Assembly (NCBI RefSeq): GCF_000011345.1
Contig: NC_004113.1
Coordinates: 186,001-250,000 of the forward strand
Direction of reading: 5' to 3'
Origin: Thermosynechococcus vestitus BP-1
Lineage (GTDB): Bacteria; Cyanobacteriota; Cyanobacteriia; Thermosynechococcales; Thermosynechococcaceae
DNA: 64,000 bases
Part shown: one piece after another, positions 14,872 through 55,533 of the stretch
How positions within the stretch are numbered: position 1 is the first letter of the stretch
Layout: each line of letters starts with the position of its first letter
The notes under the pieces: model-generated
What the model was told of the DNA's origin: nothing
Databases searched by the model: none
The model's input: the letters and a program-made list of their open reading frames with translations, nothing else
Position numbers and translations under genes: made by a program

Positions 14872-16260
14872 ATGGTAATCGCGTCCGTTAATCCCACAAC
14901 GGCTGAGGTCTTAAAAACCTTTTCTCCCTTAGGGGCTGAGGAAGTAGACAGAGCCATTGCCCAAGCGGCGACGACCTTTGAGACCTATCGCCTGACATCC
15001 TTTGAACAGCGTGCCCAGTGGCTAGAAAACACCGCCAATCTCCTGCAACAGCAGCGGGAGACTCTTGCTCGCCTTATGACCCTTGAGATGGGCAAACCAA
15101 TTGCAGAGGCACGGGCTGAAATTGACAAATGTGCGTGGGTTTGTCGTTACTATGCCGAGCAAGGGGCAGCTTTCCTGGAGCCTGAATTCATTCCCACGGA
15201 GGCAAGCTACAGTGCGATTCATTACCAGCCCCTTGGCATTATTTTGGCGGTGATGCCCTGGAATTTTCCCTTTTGGCAGGTGTTTCGTTTTGCGGCACCG
15301 GCCTTAATGGCGGGGAATGTGGCCCTGCTCAAGCATGCTTCTAATGTGCCTCAGTGCGCACTGGCGATCGCCCAGATCTTCAGGCAAGCGGGCTTTCCTG
15401 AGGGAGTCTTTCAAACCCTGCTGATTCCCGGCAGTGCCGTTGCTGATCTGGTGGCAGATCCGCGTATTAAGGCGGCTACCCTCACGGGCAGCGAGGCAGC
15501 GGGCACAAGTCTAGCCCAAGCAGCGGGTCAGCACCTCAAGAAAACAGTTCTCGAACTGGGGGGGAGTGATCCTTTTATTGTGATGCCCAGCGCGAATATC
15601 TCCCAAGCGATCGCCACCGCCGTTCAAGCGCGCATGATTAACAATGGCCAATCCTGCATTGCCGCAAAACGCTTTATTGTCCATGAGGCTGTCTATGACA
15701 CCTTTGCCGAGGGCATAAAAGCCGCCTTCGAGTCATGGGTGATTGGCGATCCCTTGGAACCTACCACCCAACTCGGCCCCCTAGCTACCGCCGCCATCCG
15801 CGATGAACTCCACGCTCAAGTTGAACTTGCCCTGGGTCATGGTGCCAAGGCGTTTTACCGCCGCTCTCTGGATCTACCGACCCAGTGTCGCCAGGGGTAT
15901 TTCTTTGGGCCAACAATTTTGACGGAGGTAACTCCCAATAACCCCGTATTTACCCAAGAGCTATTTGGGCCTGTGGCAATGCTCTTTCGGGTATCGTCCC
16001 TGACGGCGGCAATTGAACTGGCCAATGCCACACCCTTTGGTTTAGGTGCCAGTGCTTGGACACAGGACAGCGATGAAGCAGAGATCCTAGTGCGGGATCT
16101 CGAAGCGGGGGCTGTCTTTATTAACGCCATGGTCAAGTCTGATCCGCGTTTACCCTTTGGCGGGATTAAGACATCTGGCTATGGCCGCGAACTGGGACGC
16201 GCAGGACTCTTGGAGTTTGTTAATATCAAAACAGTGTGCCGAGCGAATACTCACAGTTGA
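14872..16260 (+). CDS. gabD: NAD(P)-dependent succinate-semialdehyde dehydrogenase
   Basis: A 462-residue aldehyde dehydrogenase. It has the oxyanion Asn in MPWNFPFWQ, the coenzyme loop LTGSEAAGTSLAQ, the general base Glu in VLELGGSDPF, and the catalytic Cys in NNGQSCIAAKR. The overall pattern is that of bacterial succinate-semialdehyde dehydrogenases of about 455 residues. In cyanobacteria this enzyme, with 2-oxoglutarate decarboxylase, closes the TCA cycle. Substrate is inferred from the subfamily; other short semialdehydes are possible. Confidence 0.85.
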   Translation: MVIASVNPTTAEVLKTFSPLGAEEVDRAIAQAATTFETYRLTSFEQRAQWLENTANLLQQQRETLARLMTLEMGKPIAEARAEIDKCAWVCRYYAEQGAAFLEPEFIPTEASYSAIHYQPLGIILAVMPWNFPFWQVFRFAAPALMAGNVALLKHASNVPQCALAIAQIFRQAGFPEGVFQTLLIPGSAVADLVADPRIKAATLTGSEAAGTSLAQAAGQHLKKTVLELGGSDPFIVMPSANISQAIATAVQARMINNGQSCIAAKRFIVHEAVYDTFAEGIKAAFESWVIGDPLEPTTQLGPLATAAIRDELHAQVELALGHGAKAFYRRSLDLPTQCRQGYFFGPTILTEVTPNNPVFTQELFGPVAMLFRVSSLTAAIELANATPFGLGASAWTQDSDEAEILVRDLEAGAVFINAMVKSDPRLPFGGIKTSGYGRELGRAGLLEFVNIKTVCRANTHS

Positions 16261-16440
16261 ACGAGGTTATCATCAATCAACTGAATTGATTTGGTTAATG
16301 CAGTGATATACCAAATCTCTTGTAAAGCATCTCTCTTAATTTTTTACTACTGGGTGCAATCCATTAATTAATCTTCGAATTCATCCTCTAAGCATTCACC
16401 GATCTCGTTGCCAAAGTGAGATAGAGAAGCTTTATCTTGA

Positions 16441-17757
16441 TTGACATCCTCCCCCCGCTAAAGCAGGGGGATTCCCAAAATCACTTTTGGGACTTTCTGC
16501 TTCTTCGCAGTTGCCCTCCAGACGTATGCCTATCAGGTCTTACACCCGCTCCACAGACTGTAACCGTGTGTCCCACGGCCAAAATATTCCGAGCGGCATT
16601 TATATCCCGATCATGGTGCGCCCCACACTTAGGACAGTCCCATTCTCGGACGCTCAATGGCAACCGCTCAACAATGTGACCACACTGTCCACAGCGTTTA
16701 GAACTGGGAAACCATCGGTCAATCTTCACCAGTGTCCGACCATACCACTGGGCCTTGTATTCCAATTGCCGTACCAGTTCACCCCATCCAGCATCACTGA
16801 TGGATCGGGCAAGCTGACGGTTCTTGACCATATTCTTCACAGCCAACGACTCGATTATGATCGTTTGGTTTTCACGTATCAATCGAGTCGTCAACTGGTG
16901 CAAATGGTCTTTTCTGGAATCAGAGATTTTCTGGTGAATCTTGGCAACTTTCAACCGCGCCTTATCCCAATTGCGAGAGCCTTTTTGTTTGCGACTCAAA
17001 GACCGCTGCGCCTTACGGAGTCGTTTGTAGTAGCGGTTAAAGTGCTTGGGGTTGGCAATCTTTTCCCCCGTACTCAGGGTAATGAGACTGCTAATCCCTA
17101 CGTCCAAACCAACCGACGGGTCGACGGGCTGCAGTGTCAACTCTCTGGGGTCATCAAACCTCAGATTGATGTACCACTGTCCAGCAGGGTTAAGCCTGAT
17201 GGTCACCGTGGATGGTTCAACACCATCTGGAAGCCGTCTCGACCAGGGAATATTCAGCGGTTCGTTGCACTTTGCCAAGAATACTTTTCCGTCTTTCCAC
17301 CTAAAAGCAGACTTGGTGAATTCTGCGCTACCGCCATTGCGTTTCTTTTTGAAGTTGGGATATTTTGCCCGACCTGCAAAAAAGTTAGTGAAAGCAGATT
17401 GCAGATGTCTCAATGCCTGCTGCAAGGGGACACAGCTAACCTCATTCAAAAACTGAAGGTCATCTTGCTTCTTCCACTGAGTAAGCAAGGCAGAGGTTTG
17501 AACGTAGTCAAGTCTCTCTTTTCGTTCATACCAGGCTTCTGTTCTCGCTGCCAGTGCTCGATTATAAACCAACCGAACACAGCCCAATGTTCTCCGAAGC
17601 AGGGATTCCTGCTCGGTCGTTGGGTAGAAGCGGTAACTGAAAGCCTTTTGCATGCTTTAAATTATAGCGATTATTCTGTGAGTAACACAACTATACTTGG
17701 CAGTCACAGACTATCGCTCCTATCCCTCCCCTCCCTAAAGGAGGGGGTCTCTCGGAG
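16441..17757 (-). mobile_element. TnpB-only IS200/IS605-type element, copy 2 (complete)
   Basis: A 1317-bp element. On the tnpB strand it is preceded by TTTAC (17758-17762) and ends GGATGTCAA at 16441, matching the TTAC/TCAA cleavage sites known for IS608-like elements. Subterminal hairpins are seen at both ends (near 17722-17750 and CCCCCCGCTAAAGCAGGGGG at 16451-16470). There is no tnpA. It shares near-identity with 1-1018, in the same orientation. Confidence 0.9.
16481..17653 (-). CDS. tnpB: RNA-guided endonuclease/transposon protein TnpB
   Basis: A full-length 390-residue TnpB. The N-terminal HTH/wedge region ([28 protein letters not shown]) is followed by the RuvC triad: Asp in LDVGISSL, Glu in [11 protein letters not shown] and Asp in HHDRDINAARN. 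Between the last two is a four-cysteine zinc finger (CGQCGH and CPKCGA). All catalytic residues are present, so the nuclease could be active. It would use an RNA made from the tnpB 3' end and right end of the element. The guide would be the flanking sequence just beyond 16441, within the split small ORF. Confidence 0.93.
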   Translation of the reverse strand: MQKAFSYRFYPTTEQESLLRRTLGCVRLVYNRALAARTEAWYERKERLDYVQTSALLTQWKKQDDLQFLNEVSCVPLQQALRHLQSAFTNFFAGRAKYPNFKKKRNGGSAEFTKSAFRWKDGKVFLAKCNEPLNIPWSRRLPDGVEPSTVTIRLNPAGQWYINLRFDDPRELTLQPVDPSVGLDVGISSLITLSTGEKIANPKHFNRYYKRLRKAQRSLSRKQKGSRNWDKARLKVAKIHQKISDSRKDHLHQLTTRLIRENQTIIIESLAVKNMVKNRQLARSISDAGWGELVRQLEYKAQWYGRTLVKIDRWFPSSKRCGQCGHIVERLPLSVREWDCPKCGAHHDRDINAARNILAVGHTVTVCGAGVRPDRHTSGGQLRRSRKSQK

Positions 17758-17916
17758 GTAAAGATGAGAATTGAGTGATGGCGTGCTTTCTTCATAAAGT
17801 GTCACCTTTATTTAACCCTAGTTAGATACTGTAAAATTTGTTAAAAGTAATGTCAAAAATTTTACATTACTTATACATTACTGATGTGCTTAAGTCTCTA
17901 GGGGTCGCTAGTGTTA

Positions 17917-19866
17917 TCAGTTGTTGAGTACAGGGTAAAATTTCCATTCGCGATCGCCCTTTAGTTCTAAAACATAGGTGTGGTACTGCATCAGGCTCTC
18001 GCGGTGACCAACACTGATGTAGTTGCGGGTGATGCGCTGAATATGCTCATAGACGCGTTTTTCATTTGCTAAGTCAAGGGCACTAGTGGCTTCATCCAAA
18101 ATGGCGTAGGGGCGCTGATTCAGCAGCAGGCGGGCGATCGCCAGTCGTTGTTGCTCCCCAAGAGACAGCACATCATCCCACGCCAATTCCACGTCGAGTC
18201 CGCCCACGCGATCGGGCAAATGGGCCAAGTTCACTTCATCAAGGGCACGCAAAAGAATGTCATCAGGGGTCTGGCGATCGCCACCGGGATAGAGCAGTTG
18301 GGTGCGCAGCGTACCCAGCACCATGTAGGGGCGTTGGGGCAAAAAGAGCACTTCATCCACCGCTGGCCGCATAATGCGACCCTTGCCACTTTGCCAGAGT
18401 CCAGCGATCGCCCGCAGCAGCGAACTTTTACCCACACCACTAGGTCCCATGATCACAACACTTTCGCCCGCCTCAAGGGCAAATGTGACATCTTCCACCA
18501 GTCGCCGTGCCAAATTCGGTGTATCTACGCTCACGTGTTCTAAGGCAATGTAGGGCTTCTCCACCAATTCAATTTGCGATTGAGGTGGTACGGGGGGAGT
18601 CGTCAGCGCCTCATCAAACTCTGCCAAACGCTCAATGCCCGCAATAAAGCCCGTGAGGTTCGTAAACTGGTTAACAATGATTGAGAGTGCCCCCAGTACC
18701 TGAGAGAAGGCAAAACTAGCTTGGCTAATGGAACCAAAATCAATCTCGCCGGCAAAGTAGCGGGGAGCAACCACCGCCGCCGGCACAATAATCACAAAGT
18801 AGTTATAGGCTGTCGTGAAAAAATCAAGATTTCGCTGCCAGCCAATCAATAAGTTAAAGTTCCGCAGCACTTCAAGAAAGCGTTGACGCACTTGCACGGA
18901 CTCTTGGCCTTCACCGCGATAAAAGGCAATAGACTCGGCATTATCGCGCACATGGACAAGGCCATAGCGAAAGTCCGCTTCCCGGCGCAGTTGGTTAAAA
19001 TTCAGCCAAATCAGGCGTTGCCCAATTAAAACGGTGACGATAGTGCCGACAATGGCATAGCCAATCAATGTCAGTGTTAGGGTTTGTGAGATAGTCCAGA
19101 GAATGCCACTAAAGGCAATAAGGTCAATAATTTCGCCAAGAATGATCAACAAAAACTGGAGCGAGGTTTGCGTAAATGAGCGGACATCCTCAGTGATCCG
19201 TTGATCAGGGTTATCAATTTCCCCTTGGTTTTCAATGGTGTAGTAAGCCCGATTTTGGAAATAGCGATCCAAAAAATGACGGGTGAGCCAATCCCGCCAG
19301 CGCAACCCTAGATATTCGCGCACGTAGCGATAAATGACAACAATCGGCGTCCCCACCACAAAAACGCCAGCATACACGAAGAGGAATCGCCAGTAGGTTT
19401 CGGCATTTTTCTCCGCCAGTGCCGTCTGGAAGAAGCGCCCAACAAAGCTAATAATCACGTTGAGGCCGCTCACGGAGAGGGAAAGCATCAGCAATAGCCC
19501 CAAGAGTGCCCACGCTTGCCAGCGAAGCAGGAGGGGTTGCCGCAGCAGCGCAAAGACCCCCAGGGGAACAATCACTGTCCCTAGCAGGAGACTGCGGCTA
19601 AGGGGCTGTGCCCACAGAGATTGAATCATCTCCATGAGACCGCCGGCAATTTGTCCCATCAGTTCGGGGGCAAGGGCATTCAGGCCAAAGGTGATAGCTG
19701 CCGTGAGGCCAAAGAGGAAGCCAAACATGAGGGCAATCACCAGAAAAAGCAGCAGGATAAAGATCACACTGCTGCCCCAGCGATCGCGGGGGAAAAAATA
19801 GGGTTGGGCAATCCGCAGAAACTGCCCCCAGACACGGGCATCAAAGCGATGGGTCGGCTGCGACAT
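17917..19866 (-). CDS. ABC transporter, fused permease/ATPase, SbmA/BacA (ABCD) type
   Basis: A 649-residue protein. The first 440 residues contain several long hydrophobic helices, with the SbmA/BacA-like segment WRDWLTRHFLDRYFQNRAYY and NPDQRITEDVRSF, which is diagnostic of the ABC_membrane_2 family. The ATPase has Walker A (VIMGPSGVGKSSLLRAIAGL), a degenerate signature (VLSLGEQQRLAIARLLL) and Walker B (YAILDEATSALD). Relatives transport cobalamin, peptides or long-chain acyl compounds. The substrate is unknown. It diverges from plsC with a 73-bp gap. Confidence 0.88.
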   Translation of the reverse strand: MSQPTHRFDARVWGQFLRIAQPYFFPRDRWGSSVIFILLLFLVIALMFGFLFGLTAAITFGLNALAPELMGQIAGGLMEMIQSLWAQPLSRSLLLGTVIVPLGVFALLRQPLLLRWQAWALLGLLLMLSLSVSGLNVIISFVGRFFQTALAEKNAETYWRFLFVYAGVFVVGTPIVVIYRYVREYLGLRWRDWLTRHFLDRYFQNRAYYTIENQGEIDNPDQRITEDVRSFTQTSLQFLLIILGEIIDLIAFSGILWTISQTLTLTLIGYAIVGTIVTVLIGQRLIWLNFNQLRREADFRYGLVHVRDNAESIAFYRGEGQESVQVRQRFLEVLRNFNLLIGWQRNLDFFTTAYNYFVIIVPAAVVAPRYFAGEIDFGSISQASFAFSQVLGALSIIVNQFTNLTGFIAGIERLAEFDEALTTPPVPPQSQIELVEKPYIALEHVSVDTPNLARRLVEDVTFALEAGESVVIMGPSGVGKSSLLRAIAGLWQSGKGRIMRPAVDEVLFLPQRPYMVLGTLRTQLLYPGGDRQTPDDILLRALDEVNLAHLPDRVGGLDVELAWDDVLSLGEQQRLAIARLLLNQRPYAILDEATSALDLANEKRVYEHIQRITRNYISVGHRESLMQYHTYVLELKGDREWKFYPVLNN

Positions 19867-55140: not shown

Positions 55141-55533
55141 TTAGGACTTTTGATTTCTCATGTATTCCTTAAGCACCTCTAACAGTGCTCCTCCAACAGA
55201 TGCCGCAAAATAACTAGGGCTCCAAAGTGATTCTTCATGGGGTTTTGGTAGTGCAGCTTTTCCATATCGACGACTAGATACACCTTTAAGCGCATTTACA
55301 ATCTGCGAAACAGAAAGTTTAGGAGGGTACTCAATTAGCGCATGGACATGGTCTTCTTCGCCGTTAAATTCAAGAATCTGGAAATCCATCTTCTTAGCGA
55401 CTTCTCGAAACGATTTCTCGATCAGCTCTAATCCCTCAGCGCTAAGGACTGGCCGGCGATACTTAGTCACGCATACCAAATGAATCTTTAGGTCCGTAAC
55501 ACTGTGTCTCCCTTTACGAAGATGACTTGACAT
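55141..55533 (-). CDS. tnpA: IS200/IS605 family transposase TnpA (Y1 HUH)
   Basis: A 130-residue single-strand transposase. It begins MSSHLRKGRHSVTDLKIHLV and has VCVTKYRRPVL, the HUH metal site EEDHVHALIEYPP (His-Val-His) and the catalytic Tyr in VLKEYMRNQKS close to the end. Frame is intact. It should cut and join element ends at 5'-TTAC-like sites and could mobilise the two TnpB-only elements in this window if their ends are compatible, though these are a different subfamily. Confidence 0.92.
   Translation of the reverse strand: MSSHLRKGRHSVTDLKIHLVCVTKYRRPVLSAEGLELIEKSFREVAKKMDFQILEFNGEEDHVHALIEYPPKLSVSQIVNALKGVSSRRYGKAALPKPHEESLWSPSYFAASVGGALLEVLKEYMRNQKS

What the first reader, a model, noticed from the sequence alone, without database searches (positions are those of the whole stretch)
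16368..17795. A TnpB-only element splits a 36-codon ORF that is restored exactly by removing it
Joining 17795-17758 to 16440-16368 (minus strand) gives 111 nt, ATG to TAA, with no phase loss and AAGGTG just upstream of the ATG. The TnpB element ends (TTTAC side and TGTCAA side) fall at these points. Clean excision of an IS200/IS605 element leaves no duplication, so this supports both the element boundaries and a real, unannotated small protein (MKKARHHSILIF start, acidic LEDEFED tail). Such small genes are rarely annotated.
Basis: partly seen in the sequence, partly recalled or inferred. Interest (0 to 1): 0.65.

Follow-up and report, generated by a model that had tools for sequence, protein, structure and literature searches.

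The report
TnpB element inside a gene remnant
A common jumping DNA element sits inside the broken tail end of an older gene, so the "hidden 36-residue protein" that reappears when the element is removed is most likely a dead gene fragment, not a new small protein.

Summary
The element is real, but its stated boundary is 6 nt off and the small-gene reading fails. Empty sites in sister genomes, at other insertion loci, show that CTTTAC is part of the element. It is therefore 1323 bp (window 16441-17763, minus strand), inserted 3' of a TCAT target and present in about 20 near-identical copies. Six is divisible by three, so the joined frame stays open, but it is 34 codons, not 36; the extra "FT" is element-encoded.

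A 34-codon ATG frame arises in 40% of shuffles of this 336-bp A+T-rich spacer, so the open frame alone is no evidence of a gene. Ten sister-genus genomes encode no such product.

The frame is still not random. It matches the C-terminal half of a ~107-aa cyanobacterial/prophage family (PHROG 2336, function unknown). The rest of that C-terminus (WIAPSSKKLREMLYKRFGI) lies 7 nt beyond the last sense codon in another frame, and the 5' half is absent. The two pieces align without a gap over 48 residues (45-47 bits, against at most 7.8 in 4000 shuffles). This is a decayed gene relic interrupted by a TnpB element. Ordinary biology.

The parts
16441..17763 (-). TnpB-only IS200/IS605-type element, 1323 bp, from CTTTACCTCCGAGAG (left end) to GAGGATGTCAA (right end)
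   Evidence: About 20 copies at 97-100% identity; ends from the alignment of copies and empty sites in sister genomes
17764..17767 (-). TCAT target / presumed TAM, directly 5' of the element's left end
   Evidence: T(C/T)AT precedes CTTTAC in the 20 copies with a readable left end and TCAT stands uninterrupted in empty sites
16481..17653 (-). tnpB, 390 aa, intact (DVGI, IIES, zinc ribbon CGQCG/CPKCG, DRD motifs)
   Evidence: PF01385 4.5e-32, PF07282 7.5e-27, PF12323 4.9e-21; motifs
17704..17763 (-). left-end hairpin
   Evidence: folded with ViennaRNA
16441..16500 (-). right-end hairpins, presumed 3' part of an omega RNA whose guide would be the flank 16440-16420
   Evidence: folded; the omega RNA itself is inferred from the family
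17764..17795 (-). 5' part of the split frame (MKKARHHSIL plus the first two bases of the next codon)
   Evidence: homology begins about at the H-S-I-L residues
16368..16440 (-). 3' part of the split frame (IQDKASLSHFGNEIGECLEDEFED, stop)
   Evidence: matches profile positions 61-89 of family A1 / PHROG 2336 together with the 5' part
16364..16370 (-). TAATTAA lesion: stops in both frames where the family reads straight on
16298..16363 (-). out-of-frame continuation of the same C-terminus: WIAPSSKKLREMLYKRFGISLH, then stop
   Evidence: profile positions 91-109, 13.3 bits, against a shuffle maximum of 7.6-7.8
17828..17856 (-). promoter-like TTGACA-17-TACAGT upstream of the ATG
   Evidence: read from sequence; no functional evidence

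Best explanation
A 1323-bp TnpB-only element of the IS200/IS605 group inserted 3' of a TCAT in a strain-specific, A+T-rich spacer between an aldehyde dehydrogenase gene and an ABC transporter gene. The interrupted DNA is a decayed, 5'-truncated and frame-broken copy of a patchily distributed ~107-aa cyanobacterial/prophage family of unknown function (PHROG 2336). The 34-codon frame that excision would restore is part of that relic's C-terminal half, not an intact small gene. Shown: element ends, copy number, target, homology of both pieces, lesion, absence of an intact gene in the genus. Inferred: Y1-transposase-mediated insertion in trans, loss of function of the relic, horizontal origin.
For: About 20 near-identical copies with constant ends. 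The corrected frame plus its out-of-frame continuation align without a gap to 48 profile positions, 46.5 bits, or 44.6 bits with the discovery sequence left out; 4000 dinucleotide shuffles reach at most 7.8. TAATTAA puts stops in both frames, so no single frameshift connects the pieces. The N-terminal half of the family is absent. Full-length open members exist in two same-family genera and scattered cyanobacteria and, more distantly, in viral contigs.
Against: The relic keeps an ATG, a plausible ribosome-binding site and a promoter-like sequence, so a short product before the insertion cannot be excluded. No same-species genome without the element was available to show the empty site directly.
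Confidence: 0.87

Rival explanations
1. The restored frame is a genuine small protein gene (34 codons) derived from the C-terminal region of the family, inactivated by the element.
For: ATG with AGGTGA at a plausible spacing and a TTGACA-17-TACAGT promoter-like sequence; the homologous residues belong to the conserved part of the family.
Against: Chance alone gives a frame this long in 40% of shuffles. No relative has it. The conserved C-terminal motif LREMLYKRFGI lies outside the frame behind two stops. The N-terminal half is missing.
Confidence: 0.07
2. The open frame is pure chance in non-coding DNA, and the family match is coincidental.
For: 40% chance frequency of such a frame; the first single-sequence match was weak (E 0.0047 per genome over 390 genomes).
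Against: An independent second stretch, not used in the search, follows in the right order 7 nt downstream at 13.3 bits (shuffle maximum 7.6-7.8); combined 45-47 bits. The match persists with the discovery sequence left out.
Confidence: 0.04
3. One reading: the target is TTTAC and the product has 36 codons.
For: TTTAC precedes the assumed left end in every readable copy.
Against: TCATCTTTAC is constant over 10 nt, and empty sites retain only TCAT. The family needs no two-residue insertion there.
Confidence: 0.02

Closest known systems
IS200/IS605-superfamily TnpB-only (IS1341-like) elements
   Same: TnpB with RuvC-like and zinc-ribbon motifs, subterminal hairpins, no target duplication, fixed short target 5' of the left end
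   Different: Nothing categorical; the TCAT target is specific to this element. No paper in the searched library described it.
PHROG 2336 / cyanobacterial family A1 (~107 aa, function unknown)
   Same: 48 contiguous C-terminal positions align to the two pieces
   Different: Window copy lacks the N-terminal half, has stops in both frames at the lesion, and lacks the upstream ~55-aa partner gene found in most cyanobacterial loci

Membership tests
IS200/IS605-type TnpB-only element | TnpB protein (OrfB_IS605 and zinc-ribbon domains) | tested here: met
IS200/IS605-type TnpB-only element | Insertion 3' of a fixed short target without target-site duplication | tested here: met
   TCAT; empty-site comparison
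IS200/IS605-type TnpB-only element | No Y1 transposase inside the element; a transposase elsewhere could act in trans | tested here: met
   The only long open frames in the element are tnpB and its antisense frames; 13 Y1 matches lie elsewhere in the genome. The two Y1 loci compared share no ends with this element, so the mobilising enzyme is not identified.
IS200/IS605-type TnpB-only element | Subterminal hairpins at both ends | tested here: met
IS200/IS605-type TnpB-only element | omega RNA-guided cleavage of the empty site next to the TAM | not testable with these tools
   needs biochemistry
Functional small protein gene | Open frame conserved in relatives | tested here: not met
PHROG 2336 / family A1 | Sequence match to the family profile | tested here: met
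   44.6-46.5 bits over 48 positions after bridging the lesion; the profile was built here from relatives that match PHROG 2336
PHROG 2336 / family A1 | Full-length open reading frame of ~107 aa | tested here: not met
   5' half missing, stops in both frames; hence a relic, not a working member

The most novel reading that the evidence does not exclude
The truncated C-terminal piece was, before the insertion, expressed as a minimal stand-alone protein from a new promoter and start, i.e. a small gene born from the tail of a prophage-type gene and then knocked out by a TnpB element.
Probability: 0.06. Interest if true: 0.45.

Novelty: new member of a known kind. Interest (0 to 1): 0.2.

Why it matters
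It corrects the ends of an abundant TnpB element (1323 bp, TCAT target), which would be needed for any work on its guide RNA. It also shows that restoring a frame by in-silico excision is weak evidence for a gene: chance frames are common, and a boundary error divisible by three goes unnoticed. As a find it is ordinary.

Tried and rejected
Looking for the intact 36- or 34-aa product in 29 family genomes and 390 class genomes: nothing in the genus, one weak same-family match antisense to a long frame, judged chance (G040), and one informative match (G276). Rfam on 16200-18000 gave only weak sub-threshold matches. A chance frame as the whole story: rejected because of the two-piece homology. Programmed frameshifting: rejected because both frames have a stop in TAATTAA. 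Relics of the same family in the spacers of the sister genomes: none. Pfam, NCBIfam and PADLOC gave no accepted family for the full-length relatives. INPHARED phages: no match.

Full report
Observation. The sequence between is a TnpB element with an intact 390-aa TnpB, present about 20 times in the 2,593,857-bp genome at 97-100% identity.

Boundaries. The right end is constant (GAGGATGTCAA) in every copy. To see which of these ten bases pre-existed, the flanks of 19 other copies were joined and searched in the ten sister genomes. The clean empty sites are 6 nt shorter than the joined query. Aligned, they read for example GCCACTCAT|AGCC, GTAAAGTCAT|AAAACTCC and GCGAATCAT|CTGGCG, so TCAT is the target and CTTTAC is element sequence. 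A few empty sites carry TAAT or are otherwise diverged, and one locus (L062) has extra host sequence, but none supports TTTAC as pre-existing. The element is thus window 16441-17763, 1323 bp. Because the correction is 6 nt, the frame survives but shrinks to 34 codons.

Is the frame more than chance? In dinucleotide shuffles of the 336-bp rejoined spacer, an ATG frame of at least 34 codons occurs in 40% of cases on either strand and 20% on the given strand. Its presence therefore says little by itself.

Relatives. In G001, G004, G007, G008 and G009 the aldehyde dehydrogenase and ABC transporter genes are separated by roughly 30 bp or less. In G006 most of the dehydrogenase gene is gone. G002, G003 and G005 carry other DNA between the genes, and in G010 the genes lie apart. 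None of the spacers read contains a trace of the frame or of its parent family. The spacer in the window is strain-specific and A+T-rich (34% G+C).

What the frame is. One of 390 class genomes (G276) gave a weak match in a 127-aa frame. That protein ends ...LREMLYERFGIKG, and LREMLYKRFGI is also encoded in the window, just past the stop of the small frame but in another frame. Thirteen genomes carry this family by single-sequence search and sixteen by profile, three of those only marginally. A profile from eleven of them finds the two window pieces at 18.4 and 13.3 bits at adjacent, colinear positions (59-93 and 91-109). The best of 4000 shuffles reaches 7.6, or 7.8 when G276 is left out of the profile. 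Bridged, they form a gap-free 48-residue match of 44.6-46.5 bits. The junction TAATTAA holds stops in both frames. The N-terminal half of the family is missing. This is a relic.

The family. It matches PHROG 2336, function unknown, and has no accepted Pfam, NCBIfam or PADLOC family. In 11 of 13 cyanobacterial loci it follows a ~55-aa gene. Distant relatives occur in viral contigs and proteobacteria. That the window copy came in horizontally is an inference from its patchy distribution and the strain-specific spacer.

How it works. By established knowledge of IS200/IS605 elements, a Y1 transposase acting in trans would excise the element as single-stranded DNA and insert it 3' of TCAT. TnpB with its right-end RNA would cut the resealed site and favour retention. 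The genome has 13 Y1 matches, but the two Y1 loci compared share no ends with this element, so the mobilising enzyme is not identified. None of these activities was tested here. Whether the gene decayed before or after the element landed cannot be told from one genome.

Verdict. The element is a member of a known kind. The restored frame is a gene relic. Interest is low.

Noticed in passing
L120-L131 (cyanobacterial loci); L156, L165: The relic's parent family (PHROG 2336) forms a compact two-gene cassette with a ~55-aa upstream protein (FNWFxxLWxRLDEKTKRxIIExVVKSFEELLRAFYxxWKN), in 11 of 13 cyanobacterial loci and, by eye, also in a viral contig and a Competibacteraceae MAG; function unknown.
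   Followed up: partly
L152, L154: A distant family member sits among prophage genes, next to what look like lysis genes and a terminase small subunit, as a moron-like gene (neighbour identities read by eye, not searched).
   Followed up: no
L073, L074, L075 (G000 1577900-1579230, 2169350-2170680, 1158860-1161230): Two copies (1121 bp) have the same ends but other internal DNA, and one (2155 bp) is the TnpB element with ~838 bp extra; probably group II intron insertions, in line with PMC2882425, which reports introns inserting at a conserved site in an insertion sequence.
   Followed up: partly
window 17847-17881 (-): GTAATGT, GTAATGT and ACATTAC repeats overlap a TTGACA-like box upstream of the relic, looking like an operator.
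   Followed up: no
window 55150-55503 (-): A Y1 transposase gene; the surrounding DNA is repeated elsewhere in the genome at 98.8% identity, but its ends do not resemble those of the TnpB element.
   Followed up: partly
L050 (about 320-900): In sister genome G005 the same spacer holds an unrelated open frame resembling an HPP-family membrane protein (by eye, not searched), so this spacer looks like a recurrent insertion spot.
   Followed up: no
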